From Symbiodinium sp. CCMP2592 (Eukaryota; Sar; Dinophyceae; Suessiales; Symbiodiniaceae), in NCBI GenBank assembly GCA_905221615.1, contig CAJNDT010004913.1:62001-126000 (forward strand): DNA of 64,000 nucleotides. Reading direction: 5' to 3'. This document shows positions 1 through 62,505 of the stretch, one piece after another (position 1 is the first letter of the stretch; the number at the start of each line of letters is the position of its first letter). The notes under the pieces were generated by a model, which did not search any database, had not been told where the DNA came from, and saw nothing but the letters and a program-made list of their open reading frames with translations. A program made the position numbers and the translations under genes.

Positions 1-29
1 ATTTACCGATTATTTTACTGCCAAGGAAT

Positions 30-3000
30 ATGGTGGTAGTCTCGTTTGCTGGTAGCACAACCATGTGCTGGATTTTCTATTTAGACTGTTTTCCGTCTAA
101 AAGAAAATTTGTGTCTGCGAGCTGCGTTTTCATTAAGATCGGACATGTTCATGAGAATTATATGTTCTGTATCATCCGCAGCCGCTTTCAGCCTCGAGCC
201 TCACAGCAATCAGCCTTTCGGGCTAACCAAGCGTTCCTGATCCTGTTTGGTCATTGTGCCGTAATGAGCACACGATCAAACTTCCGTAGCCGTGATGGAC
301 ACGCCCTACCCAGGGCAGTGCAGGCGTACCATGAGCGACATCCACACATGGATAGCTCGTACCCCGAGTCTCGTCGGGAAGCATCACGTCGAAACACCGA
401 ACACGGTGGACACCGAATTCACAAACGTGAGAAAAATCACGAGCCTCAATTCATCATCATGGGTCACCAACAGGTGTTCAATCCGCATCCAAGAGATCTT
501 GCTCAATTGATCTCACGATATGGCCATGCGAGTGGAGCAAGGCTCACTCTAAACTCCAGACATGGAGTCAGGCTCTACGAAGGAGTCCTTCAAGGACCAT
601 GGGACAACAGTCCCCTTGTATACTGGGATAACAACGTCGGTAATCACGCTCGTGATCCACGCCAGTTCTGTACGATGCTTGCACATCACCTTCAGACAGG
701 CCTCCCACCGGAGGTAGAACAATGTGTGAGCCTTGATGGATCCGGAGAATATGACTATTCCTCCTCAGTGCCAAAACTGGCAGATGTAACAGGTCTCTCA
801 CCAGAGATGTGCTTCCACATTCTTTCCAAGACCAACAGAGTCGGAAGGTGGTTGGCACACTCAACAAGACACCTTCAGAACCAGCGCCCAGATCTCTTTG
901 CTGGCCAACACAATTATCTTCTGGACATGTTCAAGTTGGCCGATGCAGAGCTCGCACAGTATACACCACAAGAGATCGCGCTTGGTGTCCTCCTCAACAC
1001 TAAGTCTAGGTTTGTGGTCACCATGGTTTATAACAAAGATGGCAAGGCCGAAACCACAGATGCCGCCGTTAACATCCCACCGGATGCAAATGTGTTGACC
1101 ATGAGCAAAATTTTCCTTTCGGCAGTGGGAGGACACGGTTCACGACGAACTCTACCAAGAGCTGAAGAACCAGATCCTGAAGAAGAGAGACCAAGGTCAC
1201 ACATGACCATCTCAGACTTCATGGCAACGGGGAGCAATCCAGTGCAGTCCCGTGCACAGCGTCTCTCCACTAACGCGCCGAGGCCCGTCGGCATGGAGGA
1301 TTTTGTTCGACAGAACAACCCTTGTTACATCATGCATGCCACGGACCTACAGGCATTATCCTCAATCCTGAGGCACGGTCTGGTACCATCAAACCTCCTA
1401 GCGCAGGTGGTTACAGCACCAGATTTCCAAGCTCTTGTGAATGAAAACAGTCGTTCCAACAGGGACACTGTTCAGTTCTCAACGCTAAACCTGGCGAATC
1501 CCAATCCGACCATGTTGCGTGCCAACAAGGCACTGCTTCTGGTATTCGATGCAAATAACGTAGTGAACGAAGTCACAAACCTGTGGCAGTCGCAAGTAGG
1601 GATGTTTGCTACACCAGATGTAGTGCATGCCCGTACTCTTAGCGCCGTATTCGCACCCTCTGAAACACTCTGGGTATCATCGCAATACGATGAGCTCAAG
1701 AGCATCGGACCATGGTGGGCAGACCATTGCTCCGAACAGATGCCGTCAGCGACTTACGAGTCGAAGAAATGGTGCGCAAATTACGGCCGAGAAATCGAAT
1801 CGGCACTTCGAAAAGTGGCAAGGCGAAATCTGCCACCAGAGCCTCCCAAGGCTAGATCTTCTCACAAGAAGTCTTTTTCTCTGCCAAAGACAGAGGCTGA
1901 CACAGCTCCAAACCTGGAGCAAACCGCTTCTGCAGGTGAGGTACCTCCGAAAACGGAGACTACTGCAAAGGAGATCCATCCGAGATCCAAGCTCGCCCGG
2001 CAGGCCGAGGCTGACAAGGATCCGGACAGTCTTATGGGACAGCTCTGGAACTCCGACGGCACCAGAAGCGCCACCGAAGTTCTTAAGATAACGACAGGTC
2101 ACAAACCTCCAGAACCTGTTCAGGATACTTCCGCCAACGTAGTTCCTCCCAAGGAAGAATCTTCTGGAACAGAGACGGAACCTGAGGAACCGGATCCTAA
2201 CCAGGATCGTGACGAAGAATCAGACGATGAGTCGGCATCAAGCGAAAAGAGCTCAAAATCTTCGTCATCCTCAGAACTCCGAGTTGATGTTAATCCGTCT
2301 CACAAGACGAACTCTGCACCTGCAGCGTCGGAGGAGAAGAAAGAATCTCCCACGGAAGAGATCACAGAGAAACTTAAGAAGGTCAAACTTGACCAACCAA
2401 AGCCTGAAGCAGAATATGTTCAGAGTTCAGACGAAGAGCCACAGAAACCAAAATCTCCTAAAAAGGAGAAGGAGAAATTCCTAGTTCTCTTCGATCCTGA
2501 AACAGAAAGTTATTATCGAGTCAACAGAAGCAAGCTCAACCTCGAATACGAGGAACCTGCTGATGAGGAAGATCTCGTAAGAGAACATGAGCGCATCAGC
2601 GCTCGACTTCGAGAAAATCGCAAGCACCGAATCTCGAAGTCATCGTCTAACCCGGCTATGCAACAGGAAATGAAAGAGAGAATCTGGGTTAGTCGATGGA
2701 ATCGAAAAATCCGAAGTCCACTCATGATCAAGGATTCTGAGGCTCCTGACGAAGAGGAGTGGGACAGACCCAGAGATTCGGCATCTTCCTCCTCTGCACC
2801 TCCTACCAAGGAGAGATTTGTAGGAGTACGCAGGACAGCCATGAGTCTTAACCAAAGGATACGGCTGATGACACGACCAGATAATCCTCTCTGCGATCTT
2901 TGCAACCAGCCTACAGGCTATTTTTGCTATTCCTGTGGTACGATTGTATGTGCAGACTGTCGACTTACCCCACAGGGTAAACAACAGATGTGCGAGTGCA

Positions 3001-6000
3001 TCTTGCCAATCGATTGCCTCGAGACCTCTAAAGTGTCAGCAGGAATGATCTCAGAAGAGCGTCAGGTTTTATACGAGGCCATCCTCACACATGAGGACGT
3101 AGATTTGGCAGTCCAGAAAATCAACATGTATTGCGACCACGCAAGGAATTCGTTCATGAGAGCCCATCCAGGCGTTGATCCATGTAGCTTTGATGATATT
3201 AGGAATAATCCTCCTAATACTTACACCAGCTCCACAGAGGCTCCAACCCTGGAGGAATACAAGAGCATCAACAAGGGTCACATCAATATCAAGGACTCCA
3301 GAACAAGCCACCCGGCGTCTTTTCTCTCTCTTACTGGCTACGAAGACAAACTGGTGCTCGACGCACATTACGAGATAGTTCGTAATAGGATGGCCGGTGT
3401 TAACGAAAAGAGAGAATACATAGAGGGCTCAAACCCAGACAGCGTATCACTAAGCCTAGTGGTATGCAACTGGGGAAATATGGATCGAGCGCCGGTGCCA
3501 GCAGGGAATCCCAAAAAGAAACTCAAACCTGAGAAGGGATTCGATTACCACCCTCTTATTGACATGTGCTTCAACAATTCAGCACATATTACCCTCGTAC
3601 TCGAGGCAGGAGCACTTGCGTCAAAGTATTCGATCGCAACCATGCGACAACATGAATACAGAGGGATGCTAATCCATTCTCCTCCCAAGGAGCCTGAGGC
3701 ACCCTCAATGTATATTGGAGTCAAGGGTGACCCAACAACAGACATCTCTCTCGTCCACCACTTTTACCGTCACCGAACAATGAAGCCTAAGGCTGGTGGT
3801 CCCAAGAAGCGACTGTGGGCATGCCACGGTGCGGTATGCCGCCTCACCTTTGGGTACCACAGTACCATCAAGGAGGCAAAAGAATGGGTCCACCCATATT
3901 CCGGCCAGAGGATGACGAGAGATGAGTACATGAAGATTATCGGATATGACCCTCTCAAGGGTAAAAATCCTGACAAGGATGGACCCACTGATGGCTCTTA
4001 CCTCTCACCAGAGGCGTGTCTGACACTGTCGGACCTCGACCCTTCGCCGGTTCTCTGTGAATGGAACGGCCATGTCGAGGGTGATGAGCCACCAGAGGAA
4101 GACTTTGAGTCATACGCAGAGATCTTCTCACAAGAAGCATCAAACGATCTTGACGAGATGTGGTGTACAAAAGGGCCTTACAAGGTCATCACCATCGCGA
4201 TCGTCCATTTCAACTCATACATGACTCATAAGGAAGAACAGAGGCGCGAACTGGTGAACGCGTTCCTCAACGAGGTTCTCCCTTTCAAACCGGATGTAAT
4301 TGCGGGGGATCTCAATAATATTGCGTCGAGGCTCACCTTAAAAGGTGGAGACGTTCACCCGCGAAACGGTTTGTTTTCTCTATACCTGGAGAAGAAACTT
4401 GCAGCATTCAACAGAATAGCAGGAAGGCACTCACAAGTGCGACACCTCTGCTTGAACAACTCTGACCAGCACAGACTGGCACGTGCAGATCGTCTACCGC
4501 CGGACCCGGCGAAGAAAGTTGCTGACCTCGACTGTATCAACAGTTATATCCTTGACTGGAGTAAAACGCCGCACACGGCGTCACCTAGTCCAAGAGATGC
4601 TACACCTGCCGCCGAAAGAACATACTGGGAACGAGTCTCAGATATGTGGCAGGACATGAACAGAAACAGGGATATCGATATCCGTCTGTTTGTCTCAGTC
4701 AAGCAGTACTATTCAACTTTTTCTAACCTTGACCTGTGGTTGAGTCCCTCTGACAAAGATTGGCACAGCCCTTTGGGCTTCACGATACAACCAATCCTTA
4801 CAAAAGGGAAACACAACCGGTCAGATGCCCAGGTTCAGAAGATCGCTGACAAGCGACAGGCTTACAAGCAGCGTAATGCTGAATACTGGGATTACAAAGA
4901 CTCATTTGTGTATTCATCCGGCAACAGCTGGTACGACAGACAGCAACCACAAGGTAGCTATCACAGATATGGAAGATTCTGGGAAAGGCCACAGCCTGAA
5001 CGTCCCAGCGAGCCTGAAGGCTCTCCTCCAAGAAGGAGCCAGGCATCATCGTCCTCTTCACAACAAGATCTACCAAGATCGAGATCCAGACCTCAAAGAA
5101 CCAATATTGTTGACAAGCTCAACATGTCTTTGGAAGAGCTGGATGGACTAGAAGAAGAACCGTCACCAACAAAAAGTGACATCGAAGAACACGAAAGAGA
5201 AACATCAAACTTGATGTCTGCTCAGAGAGATGAAGAGGAACAAGAGGACGAATCCTCCAGCCGGAGGAGAAGAAGGAAGGCATCACGCCCACCGTCTGCT
5301 CCGAGCGGCAAGGCACTCAGAACAGCTGCCACAGCAGCGGGGTTGTCGGGCTGGTTCGGACACCGTAACCAAGGTGGAGCGAACGCAGAGTCTATCAAGA
5401 CTGATGAACCTTCACTTCCAAACTCACTAACCAGTGAGCAAGACTTCTCCGTCTTCAGCATCGCGTGGAATGTGTTTCTGCTGCTAATGGGCCTACACTG
5501 GATGTGGAAGCAGCTCACCAGGGCTCCCATCAGATGTATGGACCGCCAACAATCAAATGCAAAAGCAGCAGCGAAACGACCACCACCATTTCTCGAACCC
5601 GAGAATGAACCACAGACGCGTGAACCTTTAGGACCCAACAGGGTCAATTCTGGAGAAACAACGGATTTGCGACCTGTGTGGCACACTTCCCGAAGCGAAG
5701 TCTACCATCTTTCAGACAGCTGTTACCAGCTCAAGCAAGCAAAAGATGTTTCAAGGAAGGTGCTGTGTAAAACCTGCCTCCAGGCAGTACAAGTTGCGGA
5801 GATTCGCAGGAACGATCCTTTTCAAAGAGGTGATACACGATCACGTGGCACCGAAAGGGACATTGAACGGTTTCAAACCTATGACGATGCAAGTACTACT
5901 CCTCATATGAGGCAATTATTCAGTGATGCATTGCATTCACAAATGGCCGAAGAAGCCATGCAGATTACCTATACATCAATCCCTAAGGGATCCTCGGCAA

Positions 6001-7169
6001 GAGCCAGAGGTACATCTGCACTCGCAAGTGCCTCATCGTCGTCAGTGCCCAAGGCAATGCCACCAGTGCCTAACAAGGCAAACATGTCACCTCCACCTAA
6101 GACTCCTCCGCCAAAGGCGAAAGGAACAGTACCTTCAGATCCTCCGAGACCAAAAGGTCCTACCAGAAGAGGAGGTCAAAATCGGCGCATTCAACGAAAA
6201 GCAGCTAGAGAAGCCCATAACAGTGGACTCTGCAACCATGCAGACGCTGCACTTGGCGAAGCCAATCAAGGCCAGGCCATTAACACTATGTGCCGAAACA
6301 TGGCAGTAAGACACGTCAGCTCTATCGATGCAACGGTAGAAGCAGCCGAGCAGTTTACACAACGCGTGCAACAGCACGTAGAAACATATGATGAAGAGGA
6401 ACCGTGGAGCACGGAGTTTCTACCAGTCGTGGAAGTCCTATTCAGGAACTTGAGCAGCGACGAAACAACTGTCATACATGACAATCATACGGTAACTATG
6501 CCTATTGAGAAATATCTCGACCTCCTCAGAATCGCACAATCATTGCGAAACTCTATCCAGAGAGACAAGGAGGAAAGAAAGGATCATCTTGACACCATCC
6601 AAGATACTCTATCCAGAGTGGAAATCCTTCTAACAGCACTGAAGGACTCAAAAACAGTCTTCAATCAATTGGTCCATTCCTCACTAGAGATAGAGCGAAG
6701 ACATAAAAACCTCAAAAATGTCCTTGAGACACTTTTTGACGACCAAAGCTCTGAGGAAGACCAGTCAGAATCTGACCATGAAGAAGTCCTAACTCCTTCT
6801 GCAGCACAGTACTGGAACAGCCTTCATGCCCACGCCTTATCTCCTTCAGGAGATGAAAGTGAAAGATCATGGGCGTCCTCAGACGGACAGCTTGAAAGAA
6901 GAAGGGCCGAACGGGCAAAGGCTAAGCAGCCACAACCGGCTAAAGCCGAGGCAACTCCAATCAGCTCACAAGCTGCACCAAAGGCCGAGCCAAAGGCGAC
7001 TACATCCAACCATGGATATGACACTGCAGACGCCGCCTTCACCAGGGCTGAGAACAGATTACTCGGAATCTTTTCAAGTTCCGAAGAAGATCACTCAGAC
7101 CCGGATGAACCACATCCGAACGTCTATGCTCGAGCCTATGATCCAAACCTGGATCCAAATCTGAGATAA
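30..7169 (+). CDS. Giant mobile-element-like polyprotein: KptA/Tpt1-like, zinc finger, EEP nuclease, TM, Ada-like zinc site
   Basis: This is a 2379-aa open frame with no stop upstream to the window edge, so the true start may lie outside. A likelier internal start is Met79 at 264, because residues 1-78 look non-coding. Domains seen in order follow. A KptA/Tpt1-like part spans about 320-545: KSRFVV near 327, MHATDLQALSSILRHGL with His436, then RDTVQFS, LLLVFDANNV (about 501-510) and GMFATPDVV (about 524). A charged low-complexity linker spans about 610-830. A Cys-rich finger lies at about 951-994 (CDLC, CYSC, CADC, CEC). An EEP-like core follows: CNWGNM (about 1147), LVLEAG (about 1189), HFNS (about 1393), DVIAGDLNN (about 1422) and DKDWHSPLGF from Asp1575. 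A membrane helix spans about 1806-1829, an Ada-like YHLSDSC...CKTC site about 1885-1917, and a coiled coil about 2162-2236. No reverse transcriptase, integrase or transposase motif was seen. The role is inferred to be that of a selfish-element polyprotein. Confidence 0.7.
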   Translation: MVVVSFAGSTTMCWIFYLDCFPSKRKFVSASCVFIKIGHVHENYMFCIIRSRFQPRASQQSAFRANQAFLILFGHCAVMSTRSNFRSRDGHALPRAVQAYHERHPHMDSSYPESRREASRRNTEHGGHRIHKREKNHEPQFIIMGHQQVFNPHPRDLAQLISRYGHASGARLTLNSRHGVRLYEGVLQGPWDNSPLVYWDNNVGNHARDPRQFCTMLAHHLQTGLPPEVEQCVSLDGSGEYDYSSSVPKLADVTGLSPEMCFHILSKTNRVGRWLAHSTRHLQNQRPDLFAGQHNYLLDMFKLADAELAQYTPQEIALGVLLNTKSRFVVTMVYNKDGKAETTDAAVNIPPDANVLTMSKIFLSAVGGHGSRRTLPRAEEPDPEEERPRSHMTISDFMATGSNPVQSRAQRLSTNAPRPVGMEDFVRQNNPCYIMHATDLQALSSILRHGLVPSNLLAQVVTAPDFQALVNENSRSNRDTVQFSTLNLANPNPTMLRANKALLLVFDANNVVNEVTNLWQSQVGMFATPDVVHARTLSAVFAPSETLWVSSQYDELKSIGPWWADHCSEQMPSATYESKKWCANYGREIESALRKVARRNLPPEPPKARSSHKKSFSLPKTEADTAPNLEQTASAGEVPPKTETTAKEIHPRSKLARQAEADKDPDSLMGQLWNSDGTRSATEVLKITTGHKPPEPVQDTSANVVPPKEESSGTETEPEEPDPNQDRDEESDDESASSEKSSKSSSSSELRVDVNPSHKTNSAPAASEEKKESPTEEITEKLKKVKLDQPKPEAEYVQSSDEEPQKPKSPKKEKEKFLVLFDPETESYYRVNRSKLNLEYEEPADEEDLVREHERISARLRENRKHRISKSSSNPAMQQEMKERIWVSRWNRKIRSPLMIKDSEAPDEEEWDRPRDSASSSSAPPTKERFVGVRRTAMSLNQRIRLMTRPDNPLCDLCNQPTGYFCYSCGTIVCADCRLTPQGKQQMCECILPIDCLETSKVSAGMISEERQVLYEAILTHEDVDLAVQKINMYCDHARNSFMRAHPGVDPCSFDDIRNNPPNTYTSSTEAPTLEEYKSINKGHINIKDSRTSHPASFLSLTGYEDKLVLDAHYEIVRNRMAGVNEKREYIEGSNPDSVSLSLVVCNWGNMDRAPVPAGNPKKKLKPEKGFDYHPLIDMCFNNSAHITLVLEAGALASKYSIATMRQHEYRGMLIHSPPKEPEAPSMYIGVKGDPTTDISLVHHFYRHRTMKPKAGGPKKRLWACHGAVCRLTFGYHSTIKEAKEWVHPYSGQRMTRDEYMKIIGYDPLKGKNPDKDGPTDGSYLSPEACLTLSDLDPSPVLCEWNGHVEGDEPPEEDFESYAEIFSQEASNDLDEMWCTKGPYKVITIAIVHFNSYMTHKEEQRRELVNAFLNEVLPFKPDVIAGDLNNIASRLTLKGGDVHPRNGLFSLYLEKKLAAFNRIAGRHSQVRHLCLNNSDQHRLARADRLPPDPAKKVADLDCINSYILDWSKTPHTASPSPRDATPAAERTYWERVSDMWQDMNRNRDIDIRLFVSVKQYYSTFSNLDLWLSPSDKDWHSPLGFTIQPILTKGKHNRSDAQVQKIADKRQAYKQRNAEYWDYKDSFVYSSGNSWYDRQQPQGSYHRYGRFWERPQPERPSEPEGSPPRRSQASSSSSQQDLPRSRSRPQRTNIVDKLNMSLEELDGLEEEPSPTKSDIEEHERETSNLMSAQRDEEEQEDESSSRRRRRKASRPPSAPSGKALRTAATAAGLSGWFGHRNQGGANAESIKTDEPSLPNSLTSEQDFSVFSIAWNVFLLLMGLHWMWKQLTRAPIRCMDRQQSNAKAAAKRPPPFLEPENEPQTREPLGPNRVNSGETTDLRPVWHTSRSEVYHLSDSCYQLKQAKDVSRKVLCKTCLQAVQVAEIRRNDPFQRGDTRSRGTERDIERFQTYDDASTTPHMRQLFSDALHSQMAEEAMQITYTSIPKGSSARARGTSALASASSSSVPKAMPPVPNKANMSPPPKTPPPKAKGTVPSDPPRPKGPTRRGGQNRRIQRKAAREAHNSGLCNHADAALGEANQGQAINTMCRNMAVRHVSSIDATVEAAEQFTQRVQQHVETYDEEEPWSTEFLPVVEVLFRNLSSDETTVIHDNHTVTMPIEKYLDLLRIAQSLRNSIQRDKEERKDHLDTIQDTLSRVEILLTALKDSKTVFNQLVHSSLEIERRHKNLKNVLETLFDDQSSEEDQSESDHEEVLTPSAAQYWNSLHAHALSPSGDESERSWASSDGQLERRRAERAKAKQPQPAKAEATPISSQAAPKAEPKATTSNHGYDTADAAFTRAENRLLGIFSSSEEDHSDPDEPHPNVYARAYDPNLDPNLR

Positions 7170-7722
7170 GAAAATTCTCAGAGTTTCACAACAGTGACTC
7201 ACAAAGCTCTAACAAGAGCACAGTGAAGGGCTGCATAATTCGGTAGAAGAACATTACCAGACCTGATCTTGTACAGATGATCTCTCTGACCAATGTGCAT
7301 GAAAGAGTTCAAAAGGAGTGACCTTCAACAGTGTACTTCAGTGCTATACCTAGCATAAACAATATGCTGTTTTTATCATGAGTCCAAACTCCGCAACTGT
7401 GACAGTGGGCATAATAGTATATGTGTGAATGTGCGGCCATGCTTCCGGTAAAAGAAAATTAGTGTCTGTTTGTTTGCGTAAACCTCTAAAGGGGTAGCTC
7501 TAACAGGTACCTACAGCAATGGCTGCATGCTCATACATATACATTCCGCTGCCCATTGGCTCACAGTGGTTTTACCATATTGAGACAAGACAAGCTCTCC
7601 TTGCGTAGCAAGACAAAACAACTACTGTCCGTGTGCAGGGCGCTGCCCTTTGATCCTTAGGGAATAAACTGGTCATACACCTCCTAACAAGGAGCATTTC
7701 CTTGTGGGTGTATCGGCTCACC
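4410..7722 (+). repeat. Left arm of giant inverted repeat
   Basis: This 3.3-kb arm is repeated in inverted orientation at 7808-11118. It includes the C-terminal 920 codons of the giant ORF and its 3' non-coding tail. Outer parts differ from the right arm by scattered substitutions. From about 7340 inward the arms are identical by direct reading. Confidence 0.9.
7170..7722 (+). other. Non-coding 3' tail of left element copy
   Basis: This lies between the stop codon and the palindrome centre, and I see no ORF of note. It contains a 28-bp stretch (7443-7470) resembling 91-117 near the start of the same copy (both carry AAAAGAAAATT then GTGTCTG). Its inner 383 bp equal the opposite arm exactly. 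Confidence 0.7.
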
Positions 7723-7807
7723 CCCCCCCCCCTTTAAAGGGGGCTTTAAAGGGGCTTAAAGGGGGGCTTAAAGGGGGGCTTAAGCCCCCCTTTGTCAAAG
7801 GGGGTGG
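7723..7807. repeat. Palindrome centre: C/G-run spacer
   Basis: An 85-bp spacer starts in a C12 run and then has four G4-G6 runs separated by CTTTAAA or CTTAAA, followed by a C6 run. It can fold on itself and the G runs could form a quadruplex. The extruded cruciform would have this as its loop. Confidence 0.7.
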
Positions 7808-8358
7808 GGTGAGCCGATACACCCACAAGGAAATGCTCCTTGTTAGGAGGTGTATGACCAGTTTATTCCCTAAGGATCAAAGGGCAGCGCCCTGCACACG
7901 GACAGTAGTTGTTTTGTCTTGCTACGCAAGGAGAGCTTGTCTTGTCTCAATATGGTAAAACCACTGTGAGCCAATGGGCAGCGGAATGTATATGTATGAG
8001 CATGCAGCCATTGCTGTAGGTACCTGTTAGAGCTACCCCTTTAGAGGTTTACGCAAACAAACAGACACTAATTTTCTTTTACCGGAAGCATGGCCGCACA
8101 TTCACACATATACTATTATGCCCACTGTCACAGTTGCGGAGTTTGGACTCATGATAAAAACAGCATATTGTTTATGCTAGGTATAGCACTGAAGTACACT
8201 GTGAGGTCACTCCTTTTGCACACACTCATGCATATTGGTCAGAGAGATCATCTGTACAAGATCAGGTCTGGTGATGTTCTTCTACCGAATTATGCAGCCC
8301 TTCATTGTGCTCTTGTTAGAGCCTTGTGAGTCACTGTTGTGAAACTCTGAGAATTTTC
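7808..8358 (-). other. Non-coding 3' tail of right element copy
   Basis: Mirror of 7170-7722. It is identical to it over 7808-8190, then differs at about eight sites in the next 170 bp before the stop codon of the second ORF copy. The short plus-strand frame starting at 8090 is a shadow of this repeat. Confidence 0.7.
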
Positions 8359-11118
8359 TTATCTCAGATTCGGATCCAGGTTTGGATCATAGGCTCGAGC
8401 ATAGACGTTCGGATGTGGTTCATCCGGGTCTGAGTGATCTTCTTCGGAACTTGAAAAGATTCCGAGTAATCTGTTCTCAGCCCTGGTGAAGGCGGCGTCT
8501 GCAGTATCATATCCATGGTTGGATGTTGTCGCCTTTGGCTCGGCCTTTGGAGCAGCTTGTGAGCTGACTGGAGTTGCCTTGGCTTTTGCCGGTTGCGGCT
8601 GCTTGGCCTTTGCCCTTTCAGCCCTTCTTCTTTCAAGCTGTCCGTCTGAGGACGCCCATGATCTTTCACTTTCATCTCCTGAGGGAGATAAGGCGTGGGC
8701 ATAAAGGCTATTCCAGTACTGTGGTGCAGAAGGAGTTAGGACTTCTTCATTGTCAGATTCTGACTGGTCTTCCTCAGAGCTTTGGTCGTCAAAGAGTGTC
8801 TCGAGGACATTTTTGAGATTGTTATTTCTTCGCTCTATCGCTAGTGAGGAATGGACCAATTGGTTAAAGACTGTCCTTGAGTCCTTCAGTGCTGTTAGAA
8901 GGATTTCCACTCTGGATAGAGTATCTTGGATGGTGTCAAGATGTTCCTTCCTTTCCTCCTTGTCTCTCTGGATAGAGCTTCGCAATGATTGTGCGATTCT
9001 GAGGAGGTCTGTGTATTTCGCAAGAGGCATAGTTACCGTTTGATTGTCATGTCTGACAGTTGTTTCGTCGCCGCTTAAGTTCCTGAATAGGACTTCCACG
9101 ACTGGTAGGAACTCCGTGCTCCACGGTTCCTCTTCATCATATGTTTCTACGTGCTGTAGCACGCGTTGTGTAAACTGGCCGGCTGCTTCTACCGTTGCAT
9201 CGATAGAGCTGACATGTCTTGATACTATGTTTCGGCACGTAACGTTAATTGCCTGGCCTTGATTGGCTTCGTCAAGTGCAGCGTCTGCATAAGTGCAGAG
9301 TCCACTGTTGTGGGCTTCTCTGGCTGCCTTTCGTTGAATACGCCGATTTTGACCTCCTCTTCTGGTAGGACCTTTTGGTCTCGGAGGAGCAGAAGGTACT
9401 GTTCCTTTTGCCTTTGGCGGAGGACTCTTAGGTGGAGGTGATATGTTTGCCTTGTTAGGCCCTGGTGGCATTGCCTTGGGCGCTGATGACGATGCGGCAC
9501 TTGAGAGTGCAGATGTACCTCTGGCCTTTGCCGAGGATCCCTTGGGAATCGATGTATAGGTAATCTGCATGGCTTCTTCGGCCATTTGTGCATGCAAGGC
9601 ATCTTTGAATAATTGTGTCATATGAGGAGTGTTACTTGCATCATCGTAGGTCTGGAAGCGCTCAATGTCTCTTTCGGTGCCACGTGGTCGTGTATCACCT
9701 CTTTGGAAAGGATCATTCCTGCGAATCTCCGCAACTTGTACTGCATGAAGGCAGTTTTTGCACAGCACCTTCCTGCAAACATCTCTTGCTTGCTTTAGCT
9801 GGTAACAGCTGTCTGAGAGATGGTAGACTTCGCTTCGGGAAGTATGCCAAATAGGTCGCAGATCAGTTGTTTCTCCGGAATTGACCCTGTTGGGTCCTAA
9901 AGGTTCACGCGTCTGCGGTTCATCCTCGGGTTCGAGGAATGGAACTCTTTGTTTCGCTGCTGCTTTTGATTTTGGTTGTTGGCGCTCCATACATCTGATA
10001 GGAGGCCTGGTAATCTGCTTCCACAGCCAGTGTAAGCCCATTAGCAGCAGAAACACATTCCACGCGATGCTGAAGACGGAGAAGTCCTGCTCACTGGTTA
10101 GTGAGTTTGGAAGTGAAGTTTCATCAGTCTTGATAGACTCTGCGTTTGCTCCACCTCGGTTGCGGTGTCCGAACCAGCCCGACAACCCCGCTGCTGTTGC
10201 AGCTGTTCTGAGTGCCTTGCCGCTCGGAGCAGACGGTGGACGCGATGCCTTCCTTCTTCTTCTCCGACTGGAGGATTCGTCCTCTTGTTCCTCTTCATCT
10301 CTCTGAGCAGACAGCAAGTTTGATGTTTCTCTTTCGTGTTCTTCGATGTCACTTTTTGTTGGTGACGGTTCTTCTTCTAGTCCATCCAGCTCTTCCAAAG
10401 ACATGTTGAGCTTGTCAACAATATTGGTTCTTTGAGGCCTGGACCTTGATCTTGGTAGATCTTGTTGTGAAGAGGACGATGATTCCTGGTTCCTTCTTGG
10501 AGGAGGACCTTCAGGCGCGCTGGGACGTTCAGGCTGTGGCCACTCCCAGAATCTTCCATATCTGTGATGGCTACCTGATGGTTGCGATTTGTCGTACCAG
10601 CTGTTGCCGGATGAGTAAACGAATTAATCGTTGTAACCCCAGTATTCAGCATTACGCTGCTTGTAAGCCTTTCGCTTGTCAGCGATCTTCTGGACCTGGG
10701 CATCTGACCGGTTGTGTTTCCCTTTTGTAAGGATTGGTTGTATCGTGAAGCCCAGTGGGCTGTGCCAATCTTTGTCAGTGGGACCCAACCATAGGTCAAG
10801 ATTAGAAAAAGTTGAATAGTACTGCTTGACTGAAACAAACAGACGGATATCAATATCCCTGTTGTTGTTCGTGTCCTGCCACATATCTGAGATTCGTTCC
10901 CAGTATGTTCTTTCAGCGGCAGGTGTAACATCTCTTGGACTAGGTGACGCCGTGTGCGGCGTTTTACTCCAGTCAAGGATATAACTGTTGATACAGTCAA
11001 GGTCAGCAACTTTCTTCGCCGGGTCCGCCGGTAGACGATCTGCACGTGCCAGTCTTTGCTGGTCGGAGTTGTTCAAGCAAAGATGTCGCACTTGTGAGTG
11101 CCTTCCTGCTATTCTGTT
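8359..11118 (-). pseudogene. Second copy of the giant polyprotein, C-terminal part, with one nonsense codon, cut by an assembly gap
   Basis: Read on the minus strand this matches 4410-7169 of the + strand copy, codon for codon (coordinates of paired bases sum to 15528). It starts inside the EEP segment (NRIAGRHSQ), keeps DKDWHS, the membrane segment, the YHLSDSC...CKNC site and the coiled coil, and ends at the same stop context. The only break is a TAA at 10624-10626 where the other copy has TCA (Ser). The 73 codons between it and Met (10404) are preserved in frame, so 8359-10404 is a 681-aa open remainder. Sampled differences from the first copy are largely synonymous, which suggests both lineages were once under protein-level constraint. 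The upstream two thirds are missing behind the N gap, so it cannot be said whether this copy was ever full length. Confidence 0.75.
10624..10626 (-). other. In-frame nonsense codon (Ser to stop) in second copy
   Basis: Minus-strand TAA. The paired + strand codon at 4902-4904 is TCA. Flanking codons align without indels on both sides. Confidence 0.85.
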
Positions 11119-11218
11119 NNNNNNNNNNNNNNNNNNNNNNNNNNNNNNNNNNNNNNNNNNNNNNNNNNNNNNNNNNNNNNNNNNNNNNNNNNNNNNNNNN
11201 NNNNNNNNNNNNNNNNNN
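11119..11218. other. Assembly gap (100 N)
   Basis: Exactly 100 N, the usual placeholder for a gap of unknown size. It cuts the right arm of the palindrome inside the EEP region, so distances across it are not real. Confidence 0.98.
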
Positions 11219-11294
11219 AGAAAAGTTTCGTATAATAATATCAATATAACGGCTATCGGGTATTCACAGAAATAGACCGATAATGTATTATATA
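11219..11294. other. AT-rich flank between gap and LTR element
   Basis: 76 bp, AT-rich, ending ATATA (11290-11294), which is the left target duplication of the LTR retrotransposon. It does not match the palindrome arm, so the right arm ends inside the gap. Confidence 0.7.
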
Positions 11295-11486
11295 TGTAAA
11301 ACCAGTAGTGGTGTCAACCAGTATGGTTCCCGACTTCGAAGAGCGAAAGCCTTTTCACTCTCCCATTGCCATAGCATCTACCTGAAAGGTCTCCAAGGGC
11401 CCACCTTCGGGCCAAAGGTTTCGGAAGAAGGCTGTATGCACATTCTCTCTCACAGCGAAGCATGACTGCCTACAGGCGGTTTTACA
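11295..11486 (-). repeat. 3' LTR (192 bp)
   Basis: Identical to 13465-13656. On the coding strand it follows the gag-protease stop codon by 5 bp. The short purine run GAGGG just before it is the only polypurine-tract candidate and overlaps the stop region. Confidence 0.93.
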
Positions 11487-11491
11487 CGCCC

Positions 11492-13393
11492 TCAATGGGC
11501 AGACTGCATTATTCCCAGGAGCCTTGGCCCGTGAGCCTGCACATCAGAACTGTCAGGAAGCCTCTCATCGGGCGGAACCAGAGGTAGGAGGAGATGGCCG
11601 TTCTCCGCCTGGGCCAGAGGCTCGCTGTGCATGCCGTGCTTGGCGCTCGTCAGGGTGCACTTGCCGAGGTCTAGCTGAGCATTCATACTCTGGAGAACTT
11701 TCCGCGAGAGGAGGAACGGTGCAGAGCCGGCCACCGTGTAGGTGGTAACTTGTCCCCATAGGCTTCCCAGCTTGACTGTCCAGCGTAACCCCTTATCCGT
11801 CGAGGTTTTCATACCATTGAAGCCCTTCAGCTGGACCGGTGGAAGGGTTACAGGCACCGGTTCGGGGAGCCCACGGCTCCGGAAGTATTCGGCATACCTC
11901 TCCGCAGTTTCTGCTCCACAAACTGACGTAGTGCATCCTGTATCGATCACCGCCGAGCCCGCCGGGACGGTGACCGCGTAGACGTCGTGCTGGTCGTCCG
12001 CCTCCTCGGTCACCATGTAGGAGAACTCCGTCACCATGCTGGCCTGGACCAGGCTCACATCCTCCCGGCGGCCACGTTTGCCGCCTCCTTTCGCCTTCTC
12101 CTTGCGCCCGGTCTTCTTGTCATACTTGAAGGTAGGCTGTATCGGCTGCCCATCCGAGGGCAAGGCTGCAGAGGAAGGCGGCGGAATCGCCACGACCGGC
12201 ATGTAGGGTTGCCGGTCCTTCTTGATCTCGCGAACTCGTCTCCGGCTGTCCTTGTAGCTGCGAAAAGCTTTTCGCACGTCCTGCTTCGCCTTCTTCTGCA
12301 CCTCATAGGCCTCCTCCAGCTCTTCGCGGTCCTCGGTGTCCGCGCTGTCTTCCTCGGCCTCGTAAGCCTCCCCTTCGGAAAGGGAAGGTTCACTCAGACT
12401 GCTCTCCTCTTCAGCAGCCATCACATTCGCCGCTCGACCGGGGCGGTGTCCACCACCTCGGTTGTTGGGATCGACGAGCTTCTCCTCGTAGTCCGAGGCC
12501 CTGATCACTTTCTCCACATCTCGGAACTTACACGAGCCACCCGTCGAACGTATCACCTGGCTGCGCTGCTCCCGGCTCAAGCCATACTTCCTCATAAAAA
12601 GATGGCCCAAGATCACCTCCGGGAAAATGGGTCGGACACGTAGGTGTCCCACCTCCAGCTTGCCCAGGTCCTCCAACATGCGTCTCTGAGCTCGCTCTTC
12701 ATCAGCTTTCTGGGTTCCACGACTGTGGTGGGACCCTCCGCCAGACGACGGGGCCTTCTTCTTAGGCGAACCCACGAAGCTGCCAACCGTCCTTGGGCCC
12801 TTGGAGTCAGAGGCTGGCTCCTCCGGGGTCTTCGTCGTCGCTGCGGGGGCCGCACTCGAAGCGGCATCGACCTGCTCCTTGGTCAGCCGCGGCTCTGCGG
12901 CCTCGGGTCCAGAACCAAAGCTGTCCATCGAACTGGAACTGGAGCGGCTTTCCTGCTTCTTGGTGCTGCGGCGGCGCTTCGTAGAGCCCTTCTGGGTCGC
13001 CTTCTCTGCGGCCACCAAGGATTCCAGCCTGCTCAGCACCGCCTTGAAGCGGGACACAAACGCCGTGGGGCCCTCGTGAGCCCGGCGTTTCAGATGAAAC
13101 AAAAACTCATCCACACACTCGTTGAGCTCCGTCTCCGGCAGGTAACGATAGTGATCATCAAGTGCCTTCAGGACGCTCAACCAGCCCTGCTGCGCTCGCA
13201 GCTCTCCAACGGAGAGATGCTCCGTCGCCCTCCAGGCCTCGCCAGTCAATCTGCTGAGGATCCTGGGTCCGGCGAGATGCACATGCTTCTCCTCCAGAGA
13301 AGCCACACTCAAGAGGATCTTCCTCCTGAAAAGTCTGTATTCAGAAGGGGCACCACTGAACGTCAGATCCCGGAAGGGGTCCTTGTCGGCCAT
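11492..13393 (-). CDS. Retrotransposon gag-protease polyprotein
   Basis: 633 aa from ATG at 13393. The open frame can be drawn from a GTG at 13402, but the ATG is the plausible start, about 70 bp after the 5' LTR. Residues 1-140 are a helical gag/capsid-like region (FSGAPSEYRLFRRK, GPRILSRLTGEAWRATE, VDEFLFHLKR). A Ser/Lys/acidic linker follows, and I see no CCHC zinc knuckle. The C-terminal part is a retropepsin with AVIDTGCTTSVCG (catalytic DTG at 484-486) and the downstream hydrophobic APFLLSRKVLQSM near 555. The frame stops right after the protease, so the protein would form particles and mature them but cannot reverse transcribe or integrate. Codon use is GC-rich compared with the flanks. 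No stop or frameshift was found, in keeping with recent mobility. Confidence 0.88.
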   Translation of the reverse strand: MADKDPFRDLTFSGAPSEYRLFRRKILLSVASLEEKHVHLAGPRILSRLTGEAWRATEHLSVGELRAQQGWLSVLKALDDHYRYLPETELNECVDEFLFHLKRRAHEGPTAFVSRFKAVLSRLESLVAAEKATQKGSTKRRRSTKKQESRSSSSSMDSFGSGPEAAEPRLTKEQVDAASSAAPAATTKTPEEPASDSKGPRTVGSFVGSPKKKAPSSGGGSHHSRGTQKADEERAQRRMLEDLGKLEVGHLRVRPIFPEVILGHLFMRKYGLSREQRSQVIRSTGGSCKFRDVEKVIRASDYEEKLVDPNNRGGGHRPGRAANVMAAEEESSLSEPSLSEGEAYEAEEDSADTEDREELEEAYEVQKKAKQDVRKAFRSYKDSRRRVREIKKDRQPYMPVVAIPPPSSAALPSDGQPIQPTFKYDKKTGRKEKAKGGGKRGRREDVSLVQASMVTEFSYMVTEEADDQHDVYAVTVPAGSAVIDTGCTTSVCGAETAERYAEYFRSRGLPEPVPVTLPPVQLKGFNGMKTSTDKGLRWTVKLGSLWGQVTTYTVAGSAPFLLSRKVLQSMNAQLDLGKCTLTSAKHGMHSEPLAQAENGHLLLPLVPPDERLPDSSDVQAHGPRLLGIMQSAH

Positions 13394-13446
13394 GGTGTCC
13401 ACCCCAAAAACAGCAGACTTTCACACTCTTGTCCCTGAATGAGCAC

Positions 13447-13464
13447 CGCAGTGCTCCGCTACCA
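13447..13464 (-). other. Candidate primer binding site
   Basis: Directly after the 5' LTR the minus strand reads TGGTAGCGGAGCACTG. TGG is the complement of a tRNA CCA end, and TGGTAGC resembles primer sites for initiator-Met tRNA. The exact tRNA is not established. Confidence 0.5.
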
Positions 13465-13656
13465 TGTAAAACCAGTAGTGGTGTCAACCAGTATGGTTCC
13501 CGACTTCGAAGAGCGAAAGCCTTTTCACTCTCCCATTGCCATAGCATCTACCTGAAAGGTCTCCAAGGGCCCACCTTCGGGCCAAAGGTTTCGGAAGAAG
13601 GCTGTATGCACATTCTCTCTCACAGCGAAGCATGACTGCCTACAGGCGGTTTTACA
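13465..13656 (-). repeat. 5' LTR (192 bp)
   Basis: Identical, base for base, to 11295-11486. It starts TG and ends CA with a 9-bp inverted terminus (TGTAAAACC/GGTTTTACA). It is the 5' LTR because the gag-protease frame reads leftward from it. Confidence 0.93.
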
Positions 13657-16198: not shown

Positions 16199-17077
16199 GC
16201 CCAATTTGTGTTACTTTCTTTGCTGCTTCCGGCGGCCGCCTGCGACAGCGATGCCGAAGAGGCCTGTAATACACCACCAGCGACCTGGCACTTCAAAAGC
16301 AGTTCTATGGAATTCCAGTCGAGTCAATTCAGGCTGTAGGTTTAGGGCCTAGGATTTAAGATTTAGGGTTTGCGGTGTAAGGTTGAGGGGGCATACTCGG
16401 CCTGCTACATGAAGCATGAAACTCATGAGACTTGATAGTGCAAACAGCTATGGTCGTTCTTTTGTAACCCACCCCCGACAAACATAACAGTCACGATATC
16501 AACACGCTATCTTCGATCACTGGACCTTTGAACCTTCACGCCGTTCCAGACTGGGACGCCCACTGGTGTAGCCGGACTGAGCGATTCAGCACTGCTAGAC
16601 TCAAACACGAACCCACCAGTAGTGGGGCCTCTCAGTAGATCAGAGCGTCGGGATATGATATGAGTACCCCACTTGTCCAGACCTGTATAATGAGTGTTCC
16701 GAGAGTCCGGGGATTCCACCCCATCCGCCACCACCCTGAACACCGAAGCCTCTGAACCCTCAACTCTGAGCCCCGAAACCACACCTAAAAAATAACACCG
16801 GCAAGCACTCACCCGCGAACCGCCTGCGACGGCTTCTTCGTTCGCAGGGTAGTCGGCATGAAGCGAGTCGCCTGAAAGCAAGCTTGTGTTGCAAGACCTC
16901 TATGGGGTTTAGCCCTAAAGCTTTAGGGTTCGGAGGTCTTGGAATGTGCTTAGTTAAAGGCTTAAAGGGTTTAGGTGTTTCAGGGTTGTGGGCTTTAAGG
17001 GTTCAAGAATTTCGGGGGCATGATCAAACTTGGTTGCTAAAGGCTTCTAATTAAACGGCCAGCCTGTTCAGACCTTA

Positions 17078-17186
17078 CCTAGAGGATCATGAGACTTAGT
17101 AAGTAAGATTATAAGTACCCTGATTGGGGTTATAAGTATAGTTACCCTAATAATAACCCCAGTTACTAAGTCCCGTGATCCTTTAA
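17078..17186. mobile_element. MITE, CTTGGAGGATCATGGGACTT family
   Basis: Ends read CCTAGAGGATCATGAGACTT and AAGTCCCGTGATCCTTTAAG, with the family interior ATAAGTACCCTGATTGGGG. Imperfect arms indicate some age. Confidence 0.75.
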
Positions 17187-17416
17187 GCAAGAGCGACGCT
17201 ACTGGGTCAAAGAGCACTCGGGGTGTTTGCACCCCATGTAGTCCCGAAGAAACCAAAACCCATGAAAAACAGCCTTAATCCAAGACTGCTCGAACTTCTC
17301 CACAGAGATTCGAAACATCCAGGTAAACACATATCAAAGAAAACCCCTTAACCACTTACTGAAGCTCCGGAAGACCTGCTTCCAAACCCGTTGAATCTCT
17401 TTGGCTTCTCTTCCCA

Positions 17417-37265: not shown

Positions 37266-37287
37266 ACCCCAAGCCTAGGTTATAGGT

Positions 37288-37399
37288 CCTTGGAGGATCA
37301 TGGGACTTAGTAAGTAAGGTTATAAGTACGCCAATTGGGGTTATAAGTATAATTACCCTCATAATATCCCTAGTTACGAAGTCCCATAATCCTTTAAGT
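37288..37399. mobile_element. MITE, CTTGGAGGATCATGGGACTT family
   Basis: CTTGGAGGATCATGGGACTT pairs with the closing GAAGTCCCATAATCCTTTAAG. Confidence 0.8.
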
Positions 37400-41803: not shown

Positions 41804-42070
41804 ATACTTTAAGGATCATGGGACTTAGTAACTAGGGTTGCTATTAGGGTAATGATACTTATAACCACTTATAACCCCAATTAGGATGACCCCTATAAGA
41901 ATATCCTAAACCCCTTAGGGTAACTATACTTATAACCCGAATTGGGGTACTTATAACCTTACTTACTAAGTCCCATCATCTTCCTTGTAGAACTCTTATA
42001 GAAACCCTATAGATCCCTTATGGATCCTTTTAAGGAGCCTTACTTACTAAGTCCCATGATCCTCCAAGTA
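41804..42070. mobile_element. Compound CTTGGAGGATCATGGGACTT-family element
   Basis: The left arm CTTTAAGGATCATGGGACTT follows TA; two successive right arms (TTACTAAGTCCCATCATC and TTACTAAGTCCCATGATCCTCCAAG followed by TA) lie 80 bp apart. It suggests insertion or tandem duplication within one copy. Confidence 0.75.
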
Positions 42071-45640: not shown

Positions 45641-45760
45641 TACTTGGAGGATCATGGGACTTAGTAAGTAAGGATATACGTACCCTAATTGGGGATATAA
45701 GTGGTTATAAGTATCATTACCCTAATAACAAGCCTAGTTACTAAGTCCATGATCCTTTAC
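45641..45760. mobile_element. MITE, CTTGGAGGATCATGGGACTT family
   Basis: CTTGGAGGATCATGGGACTT and the closing TTACTAAGTCCATGATCCTTTACG. Confidence 0.75.
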
Positions 45761-45896
45761 GCAAACCCTCAACCTACCTCGAACTCTAAACACTGTAAAC
45801 CTGGCCGAGTGGCAGGAGACTGGGTCTGGGCTGTCCCAACATGGCTGCCCTCCTCCACCGCGCAGTTCCTTACGGATGAGAGCTCTGCTGTAGAAG

Positions 45897-53392: not shown

Positions 53393-53405
<13 letters not shown>

Positions 53406-53444
<39 letters not shown>
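53406..53444. repeat. (AT)n microsatellite
   Basis: 39 bp of alternating A and T. Confidence 0.97.

Positions 53445-53736: not shown

Positions 53737-53786
<50 letters not shown>
53737..53786. repeat. (AG)25 microsatellite
   Basis: Uninterrupted AG dinucleotides, bordered by AT runs on both sides. Confidence 0.98.
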
Positions 53787-53790
<4 letters not shown>

Positions 53791-55654: not shown

Positions 55655-55780
55655 GTACCTAAAGGATCATGGGACTTAGTAACTAGGGTTGTTATCAGGG
55701 TAATTATACTTAAAACTACTTATAACTCCAATTAGGGTACATATAACCTTACTTACTAAGTCCCATGATCCTCCAAGTAC
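55655..55780. mobile_element. MITE, CTTGGAGGATCATGGGACTT family, TA-flanked
   Basis: GTACCTAAAGGATCATGGGA pairs with TCCCATGATCCTCCAAGTAC. Half ends of the TTTCGGAAACTCC family lie on each side (55560-55590 and 55787-55803), so this copy probably inserted into one of those. Confidence 0.8.
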
Positions 55781-55808
55781 CCCTAATTTTTCGGAACTCC
55801 CATATCAC

Positions 55809-61506: not shown

Positions 61507-62505
61507 TCAGCCCTGCACACCGACATCTTTGAGAAAGATGCTGATGTTGTGCCTTGCCAGCAGGCGCAAAGCCAACGCTGCAGCGTGGATCCCGTGGATC
61601 TTGGCTGTGGACAGTGTGACATTGTCGATGGTGGCTTCGAAAGTTGAAGCGTTGGCTTTGACTTCCGTTCGGTTCCCACTGACTGTGTCCAAGTGATCGG
61701 CCAGCAGGCCGGCAGGAAGCTGCTTGGAGCGAAGATTGGAGGGGATGGCAGCGGCTACAGCGGATTGAAGCTCCAAGTATGCAACAAACGCGGTGGCCGG
61801 CTTCTGCCAGCCACAAAGCCTCAAGGCCAGCGCAATCTGTGCTGCCTGCTGGATGCCTTTTGTGAAAGTCCCCCATCCAACTTGCAACTTTACCTCGCCA
61901 TGAACAAGCTCACACCCCATCAGCGGCAAGGTGGCCAAATTGACCTCGACATCCTGGCTCGCAAGATGTTGAAAGACAATGCTGCGCTTTCTGGTCCATT
62001 TCAACACCGGGATGGGGTGCAGGACAAAACCTGCACCAAAGAAGCGGCAACAAAGACTGAGAAACGAGTTATCCTGTCTGCCCACCTTGTAGAAATCGAT
62101 CTTCACATTCTGCAGTTGCGGAAAGATATCGCCCAGAACTGATCCCACTCGGTTGTACAGCAGTACTTCTAGAATTGGACCCAAAAGGGATCGCAACTTG
62201 GCGATGTCGCCTTTGACATCTTTGCGCATCTTTTCTTGTTCTTTACGCATCTTTTCTTGTTCTTGTCTGACAAGTTTGACATCTTTACGCATCTTTTCTT
62301 GTTCCTGCAGAACAACCGAAATGCCCAAGAAGTCCCGCACAGAGCGGCGCAAGTCATCTGCAAAGCTGGACCTAGAAACCCTGACCTTCCGGCTGTAGCC
62401 TTTTGCCGGCACACCAGCAAACAGCGTTCCCGGCCATGCGGGATGGAACGCCAGCAACGTCCAGACAAGCAGCCACCAGCGGCCCGCGGTCTGCGCAATC
62501 GCCAT
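61507..62505 (-). CDS. Secreted or plastid-targeted coiled-coil protein, possible PD-(D/E)xK-like core
   Basis: 332 aa from ATG at 62505, the only long intact non-element frame in the right 50 kb. Seen: a hydrophobic signal (WWLLVWTLLAFHPAW, residues 10-24), then a Phe-containing, Arg/Ser-rich stretch (TLFAGVPAKGYSRKVRVSRSS) like a plastid transit region. A coiled coil with three EQEKMRK units lies at 69-98. It is followed by LLGPILEVLLYNRVG, IDFYKV (136-141), VEVN (186-189) with Asp185, and GEVKLQVG (203-210). Coiled coil followed by D...ExK resembles the layout of DUF3782-type PD-(D/E)xK proteins, but the match is by eye and weak. A C-terminal Ala/Leu-rich helical part carries several NxT sites. 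No introns, operon or promoter signals can be recognised. It could be a retrogene or one exon of a larger gene. I infer a function only at the level of a targeted, possibly nuclease-fold protein. Confidence 0.6.
   Translation of the reverse strand: MAIAQTAGRWWLLVWTLLAFHPAWPGTLFAGVPAKGYSRKVRVSRSSFADDLRRSVRDFLGISVVLQEQEKMRKDVKLVRQEQEKMRKEQEKMRKDVKGDIAKLRSLLGPILEVLLYNRVGSVLGDIFPQLQNVKIDFYKVGRQDNSFLSLCCRFFGAGFVLHPIPVLKWTRKRSIVFQHLASQDVEVNLATLPLMGCELVHGEVKLQVGWGTFTKGIQQAAQIALALRLCGWQKPATAFVAYLELQSAVAAAIPSNLRSKQLPAGLLADHLDTVSGNRTEVKANASTFEATIDNVTLSTAKIHGIHAAALALRLLARHNISIFLKDVGVQG
62212..62307 (-). repeat. In-gene tandem repeat coding EQEKMRK units
   Basis: The unit CATCTTTTCTTGTTC (plus strand) recurs three times with ACATCTTT(G/A)CG spacers, giving EQEKMRKDVK and EQEKMRK copies. 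Internal duplication has lengthened the coil. Confidence 0.85.

What the first reader, a model, noticed from the sequence alone, without database searches (positions are those of the whole stretch)
30..7169. Giant ORF joining a KptA/Tpt1-like domain, a zinc finger, an EEP nuclease, a membrane helix and an Ada-like zinc site
Seen: the motif order HAT...GL / RDTVQFS / LLLVFDA / GMFATP, the four-pair Cys finger, and EEP signatures CNWGNM, LVLEAG, GDLNN and DKDWHSPL, all in one frame. Known: KptA/Tpt1 removes RNA 2'-phosphates using NAD+, and EEP (APE-like) nucleases serve many non-LTR retrotransposons. Inference: a duplicated, mobile-like unit that couples RNA 2'-end chemistry to a nuclease but lacks reverse transcriptase would be an unfamiliar kind of selfish element. 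This is my best candidate for an undescribed system.
Basis: partly seen in the sequence, partly recalled or inferred. Interest (0 to 1): 0.8.

Follow-up and report, generated by a model that had tools for sequence, protein, structure and literature searches.

The report
Giant ART-nuclease protein of repeat element
A very long intact protein gene, probably from a repeated (mobile-like) element of a dinoflagellate-like genome, joins an enzyme lobe related to RNA-repair ADP-ribosyltransferases with a nuclease-like core, but the copying enzyme expected of such an element was not found in what could be checked.

Summary
The ORF is real: 30-7169 (+), 2379 aa; the likely start is Met79 (nt 264). Two domain calls survive controls. 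Residues ~431-531 match the NAD+ lobe of KptA/Tpt1 (0 of 200 shuffles, 0 of 38 decoys as high), but the RNA lobe carrying three of Tpt1's four essential residues was not found. Residues 1386-1434 match the EEP core around GDLNN with the more diverse of two profiles (0/200, 0/38); the ExoIII-like profile was not above shuffles, and the rest of the EEP fold rests on motif order. A B-box-like finger passes Pfam's cut-off. The Ada-like site is unsupported; the membrane helix rests on borderline hydropathy. No reverse transcriptase, integrase or transposase was found in the ORFs scanned. The inverted second copy covers only aa 1461-2379, ends at a 100-N gap and has a stop codon, so it cannot show that ART and EEP travel together. 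Both copies share a 3' UTR that ends in C/G-rich repeats. Best reading (0.4): large protein of a non-LTR-like retroelement with a recruited ART lobe, its RT in trans or upstream. Copy number and flanks were out of reach.

The parts
30..7169 (+). Giant ORF, 2379 aa from first ATG; likely real start Met79 at nt 264
   Evidence: the ORF listing; codon-use log-odds
98..117 (+). 20-nt word in the 5' leader shared (19/20) with the 3' UTR (7449-7468)
   Evidence: noticed in a blastn self-search, then tested: 0 of 2000 shuffles and 0 of 382 slices of 13700-63700 as high
1320..1622 (+). KptA/Tpt1-like NAD+ lobe (ART), aa ~431-531
   Evidence: hhalign score 37.3, prob 84%, E 8e-6, 0/200 shuffles; 0/38 decoys; Pfam PTS_2-RNA E=0.02, below cut-off
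2880..2999 (+). B-box-like zinc finger, Cys cluster aa 951-990 (Pfam match 951-979)
   Evidence: Pfam PF00643 E=8.8e-6, 26.2 bits over the 24.1 cut-off for the piece; 20.9 bits, below cut-off, in the full-length scan
3459..4775 (+). EEP-like nuclease region, aa 1144-1582, with a long stretch between LVLEAG and IVHFNS
   Evidence: profile match only at aa 1386-1434 with EEP set 2, 0/200 shuffles, 0/38 decoys; EEP set 1 not above shuffles
5445..5507 (+). Possible single membrane helix, aa 1806-1826
   Evidence: highest 19-aa hydropathy window of the protein, mean 1.56, slightly under the usual 1.6 threshold (recalled)
5676..5780 (+).
   Evidence: motif only; no supporting Pfam or NCBIfam hit
7170..7769 (+). 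3' UTR ending in a C/G-rich stretch and CTTAAAGGGGGG-like repeats
   Evidence: the 80-nt tail as RNA folds no better than shuffles
7328..7724 (+). 397-nt part of the 3' UTR identical to the same part of copy 2, while the arms elsewhere are ~93% identical
   Evidence: mismatch map; inverted repeats I1, I2
7770..7793 (.). 24-bp perfect palindrome between the two tail-to-tail copies
8362..11118 (-). Inverted partial second copy (aa 1461-2379), one in-frame stop
   Evidence: tblastn 91.3% over 919 aa; stop at codon 1625
11119..11218 (.). 100-N gap that cuts copy 2

Best explanation
The ORF is the large protein of a repeated, retroelement-like family in a dinoflagellate-like genome. It most likely works beside a reverse transcriptase encoded elsewhere, either on an ORF upstream of the window or on an autonomous partner. 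Proposed steps: the B-box, the C-terminal part and the possible membrane helix hold the element's RNA-protein particle, perhaps at the nuclear envelope; the RT recognises the structured repeat tail; the EEP core nicks the target; and the ART lobe uses NAD+ to ADP-ribosylate an RNA or DNA end or a host protein. Shown here: the ORF, the ART-lobe and EEP-core similarity, the zinc finger, two copies with a common 3' UTR, and constraint on the protein. Inferred: mobility, RT in trans, every biochemical step, and the host group.
For: Intact ORF of 2379 aa without an intron. ART lobe keeping the His and Thr of the HGT motif, which contact NAD+ in Tpt1 (PMC6333775, passages). EEP core. Two divergent copies with homologous 3' UTRs. 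dN/dS 0.043/0.167 (NG86), 0.046/0.135 (YN00), 0.045/0.130 (ML), with 102 of 182 differences at third codon positions. TTTAGGG/CCCTAAA words absent from 1-12 kb but 306 in the rest of the window, so this block differs from its surroundings, as coding sequence also would. Precedent: Symbiodinium LINEs carry a recruited methyltransferase in an ORF upstream of the RT ORF, are mostly intronless and lack poly-A tails; Exo_endo_phos and RVT_1 are among the domains named in their figure legend (PMC5890265, passages).
Against: No RT, RNase H, integrase or transposase hit in the ORF or in the other ORFs scanned. In known LINEs the EEP lies in the same protein as RT (recalled); here ~800 aa without RT follow the EEP region. 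Only two copies are seen, and the ART and zinc finger in one only. Target-site duplications could not be looked for. The ExoIII-like EEP profile did not beat shuffles. Neither AF2 model was confident (mean pLDDT 41 and 30). No relative was found in the collections searched.
Confidence: 0.4

Rival explanations
1. A host gene family: a large multidomain protein with an ART lobe and an EEP-like domain, duplicated tail to tail, the second copy decaying.
For: No mobility gene in the ORFs scanned; dN below dS; one copy carries a stop; a B-box finger is unusual for a LINE (recalled).
Against: No intron, while typical Symbiodinium genes are very long with short exons (PMC5890265, passages). The similarity runs through the whole 3' UTR to a repeat tail, as in element copies, although a segmental duplication would give that too.
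Confidence: 0.25
2. An ordinary autonomous LINE or other retroelement: this is its ORF1 or accessory ORF, and the RT ORF lies upstream of the window or was lost from this copy.
For: The window begins at or near the element's leader, so upstream sequence is unseen; SymbioLINE-Dnmt elements have a second ORF with RT (PMC5890265, passages).
Against: In SymbioLINE-Dnmt the RT ORF is the downstream one (PMC5890265, passages); here only ~600 nt of UTR follow. The EEP would be separated from RT.
Confidence: 0.2
3. The tail-to-tail pair is partly an assembly artefact: two unlinked copies joined at the terminal palindrome. (This concerns the pair, not the ORF, and can be true together with the other readings.)
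For: A 24-bp perfect palindrome at the join, 397 nt of perfect identity beside it against ~93% further out, and a gap at the other end of copy 2.
Against: The arms differ by ~7%, so the second arm is not a simple mirrored read; gene conversion at a palindrome gives the same picture.
Confidence: 0.35

Closest known systems
SymbioLINE-Dnmt (LINEs of Symbiodinium with a DNA methyltransferase in the ORF upstream of RT; PMC5890265, passages seen)
   Same: ORF without introns, EEP-type endonuclease, recruited cellular enzyme, conserved 3' UTR without poly-A, dN below dS
   Different: Enzyme is a KptA-like ART lobe, not a methyltransferase; no RT found; the EEP sits in the same ORF as the recruited enzyme; a zinc finger and a possible membrane helix are added
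Tpt1/KptA RNA 2'-phosphotransferase (PMC6333775, passages seen)
   Same: NAD+ lobe with HxT; by the hhalign alignment an Arg before the V-x-x-S strand, another Arg in the next segment, and a G-x-x-x-T strand
   Different: N-terminal winged-helix RNA lobe not found, so no Arg-His-Arg of the essential tetrad; 22 extra residues after the first helix; VQFS where nearly all bacterial enzymes aligned read VHLS
KptA domains embedded in RNA-virus polyproteins (PMC9503650, passages seen)
   Same: A KptA-type domain inside a large protein of a parasitic genome
   Different: Those are positive-strand RNA-virus polyproteins; here the neighbours are an EEP core and a B-box finger, with no polymerase found
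EEP (Exo_endo_phos) nucleases
   Same: GD-hydrophobic-N core after an H-x-x-S strand; motif order N, E, H, D-N, D..H
   Different: Long stretch (~195 aa) between the E and H motifs; DWHSPL instead of the usual SDHxP (recalled); no Pfam hit

Membership tests
Tpt1/KptA | NAD+ lobe with H-x-T and the following strands | tested here: met
   hhalign 37.3, prob 84%, 0/200 shuffles, 0/38 decoys; Pfam PTS_2-RNA 15.4 bits against a cut-off of 26, with DUF7002 (14.3) and DUF4732 (14.0) nearly as high, so the exact ART subfamily is open
Tpt1/KptA | N-terminal winged-helix RNA lobe with Arg-His and Arg | tested here: not met
   KptA N-terminal profile against aa 79-400: prob 0.24%, and against aa 131-260: 0.13%
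EEP nuclease | GDxN core with preceding HxxS strand | tested here: met
   EEP set 2 (32 of 35 loci used): score 33.4, prob 52%, 0/200 shuffles, 0/38 decoys; but EEP set 1 (29 of 30 loci): 24.8, reached by 1/100 shuffles
EEP nuclease | Full fold with N-terminal N, E and C-terminal D-H | tested here: inconclusive
   motif order present; a post hoc strict pattern matched 0 of 100000 shuffles but also 0 of 61 real EEPs, and a looser one matched only 21 of 61 of these; AF2 model mean pLDDT 30
Non-LTR retrotransposon (LINE) | Reverse transcriptase | tested here: not met
   no RVT hit in the giant ORF, its pieces, the other ORFs, or the 10 of 35 further ORFs; nothing beyond the window could be searched
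Non-LTR retrotransposon (LINE) | Common 3' end (poly-A or short repeats) in all copies | tested here: inconclusive
   two copies, both ending in the C/G-rich stretch and repeats, but at a shared palindrome
Non-LTR retrotransposon (LINE) | Target-site duplication, many dispersed copies | not testable with these tools
   no genome held; the 5' end of copy 1 is at the window edge and that of copy 2 in or beyond a gap
SymbioLINE-Dnmt | DNA methyltransferase in ORF1 | tested here: not met
   no methyltransferase hit in this ORF

The most novel reading that the evidence does not exclude
A retroelement family without its own RT whose single giant protein couples an NAD+-dependent ADP-ribosyltransferase lobe to an EEP nuclease and a membrane anchor, and that moves by borrowing an RT; the ART would modify nucleic-acid ends or host proteins during insertion.
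Probability: 0.2. Interest if true: 0.8.

Novelty: new variant of a known kind. Interest (0 to 1): 0.45.

Why it matters
If full copies confirm it, this adds ADP-ribosyl transfer to the host enzymes captured by eukaryotic retroelements (cytosine methyltransferases are a known dinoflagellate case, PMC5890265), and it would offer a direct test of whether nucleic-acid ADP-ribosylation can serve element insertion or evasion of the host.

Tried and rejected
Whole-genome copy search: not possible, no genome held. Relatives: viral contigs with three parts of the protein and genome contigs with one part gave none; these scans use six short peptides each and reach close relatives only. tblastn of aa 401-1657 against phages: no match; plasmids were not searched. 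DNA word of the 3' tail in viral contigs: one hit, L093, only 20 nt alike, judged chance. PDB by sequence: the EEP region gave three weak unrelated hits, the ART region none. AF2 without an alignment: too poor to search folds with (mean pLDDT 41 and 30), so no fold search was run. EEP profile from ExoIII-like proteins: not above shuffles. KptA RNA lobe in the N-terminal part: none. Long terminal repeat idea: 5' leader against 3' UTR shows only a 20-nt word; under looser scoring the longer alignment was not special (29 of 500 shuffles as high). Dinoflagellate spliced leader: no match to the 21-nt word with up to 3 mismatches; an 8-nt piece occurs five times, judged chance. Rfam: no match at gathering scores. 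Literature: in the rows listed (several showed only the top rows of longer lists) I saw no paper on a KptA-bearing retroelement; one search listed three papers that hold both words once each, which I did not open. A first dN/dS attempt was wrong because of the stop codon and was redone.

Full report
Observation. The window holds one ORF at 30-7169 (+) of 2379 aa, open also to the window edge. The first 75 codons have negative codon-use scores, so translation probably starts at Met79 (nt 264) or a little later.

Host. No organism is named and no genome is held. The rest of the window has few long ORFs and is strewn with TTTAGGG/CCCTAAA words: 306 over the window, none in the first 12 kb. TTTAGGG is the telomere unit in dinoflagellates as in plants (PMC11453091, passages). 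My placing of the window in a dinoflagellate-like genome is an inference from this and from the general look of the sequence (recalled); the spliced leader of that group was not found.

ART lobe. Pfam's best hit for aa 401-640 is PTS_2-RNA, the KptA/Tpt1 family, at E=0.02 (15.4 bits, cut-off 26), with DUF7002 and DUF4732 nearly as high. A profile made from 19 of 24 bacterial KptA proteins matched the same piece with hhalign score 37.3, probability 84%, E 8e-6, over about aa 431-531. None of 200 shuffles (best 21.2) and none of 38 decoy pieces (best 19.3) reached it, and among windows slid along the giant protein the one at aa 361 was the best (37.0; the one at 241, which overlaps the domain, gave 29.3). 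The His and Thr of the HGT motif, which contact NAD+ in Tpt1 (PMC6333775, passages), are kept as HAT. In the hhalign alignment the Arg of R-x-x-V-x-x-S and one Arg of the next segment are kept as well. The RNA lobe, which holds Arg18, His19 and Arg68 of Tpt1's essential tetrad (Clostridium thermocellum numbering), was not found. So the lobe may bind NAD+, but Tpt1's own reaction is not predicted.

Zinc finger. Pfam zf-B_box, E=8.8e-6, above cut-off for the piece, below cut-off in the full-length scan.

EEP. No Pfam or NCBIfam hit. An ExoIII-like set of 29 proteins gave score 24.8, reached by 1 of 100 shuffles. A more diverse set of 32 gave 33.4-34 over aa 1386-1434, reached by 0 of 200 shuffles (best 21.0) and 0 of 38 decoys (best 20.7). 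The second set was chosen after the first had failed, which weakens the test somewhat. The order of the other motifs is suggestive; my strict pattern was post hoc, matched none of 100000 shuffles, and matched none of 61 real EEPs either, so it carries little weight. AF2 without an alignment failed for both domains.

Rest of the protein. The highest hydropathy window is at aa 1806-1824, mean 1.56, borderline for a membrane helix. The Ada-like His/Cys motif has no supporting hit. No polymerase, integrase or transposase was found in the ORF or its pieces, in the ORFs 8359-10404, 11492-13402 and 61507-62505, or in 10 of the 35 stop-to-stop ORFs of at least 105 aa in 13700-64000. The other 24 of those (one of the 35 was) and the antisense ORF 12644-13438 were not scanned, and broken or split genes would be missed.

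Second copy and palindrome. Copy 2 runs from 11118 down to 8362, 91.3% identical over aa 1461-2379. It ends at a 100-N gap and has one in-frame stop. dN/dS is 0.043/0.167 (NG86), 0.046/0.135 (YN00) or 0.045/0.130 (ML), with differences by codon position 41, 39 and 102. This says that the lineage of the protein was under constraint. The two copies lie tail to tail around a 24-bp palindrome. From 7328 to 7724 they are identical, while the 200-nt bins further out are 88.5-98.5% identical. Gene conversion at a palindrome and an assembly join are both possible. As DNA the junction folds far better than shuffles (z -6.1), but the 80-nt tail as RNA does not (z -0.8).

Leader. A 20-nt word at 98-117 recurs at 7449-7468, 19 of 20 (0 of 2000 shuffles). 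It is too short to be a terminal repeat; a looser, longer alignment was not special (29 of 500 shuffles as high).

Interpretation. The nearest precedent I found is the Symbiodinium LINE family with a captured methyltransferase upstream of an RT ORF (PMC5890265, passages). KptA domains inside parasitic polyproteins are known from a few RNA viruses (PMC9503650, passages). The present protein resembles such capture, but RT is missing from what can be seen, and the copy that could show the unit moving as a whole is cut by the gap. I hold the element reading at 0.4, the ART lobe at about 0.8 and the EEP core at about 0.65. The boldest reading not excluded is an RT-less element that pairs ADP-ribosyl transfer with target nicking.

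Noticed in passing
11294-13656: Short LTR-type element: 193 identical bp at both ends, of which 192 run from TG to CA, with ATATA on both outer sides (in AT-rich flanks, so weak), and one 636-aa ORF (- strand) that looks like gag plus an aspartic-protease motif (DTGCTTSVCG, my reading; no supporting Pfam hit). No relative in viral contigs.
   Followed up: partly
13700-64000: TTTAGGG/CCCTAAA words in both directions (136 and 170 in the window), many as short degenerate arrays; none in 1-12000.
   Followed up: partly
7328-7724 and its mirror in copy 2: 397 nt without a single mismatch beside a palindrome, while the flanking arms differ by about 7%.
   Followed up: partly
17076-17190, 37285-37399, 41805-41885, 45641-45764, 55656-55781: A dispersed repeat, 75-125 bp in the pairwise matches and in both orientations, about 80-95% identical.
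   Followed up: no
61507-62505 (-): 332-aa ORF with a hydrophobic N-terminus and short QEKMRK repeats (21-bp unit, 2.2 copies); no convincing family hit.
   Followed up: no
53393-53444 and 53737-53788: TA and AG dinucleotide arrays of 26 units each.
   Followed up: no
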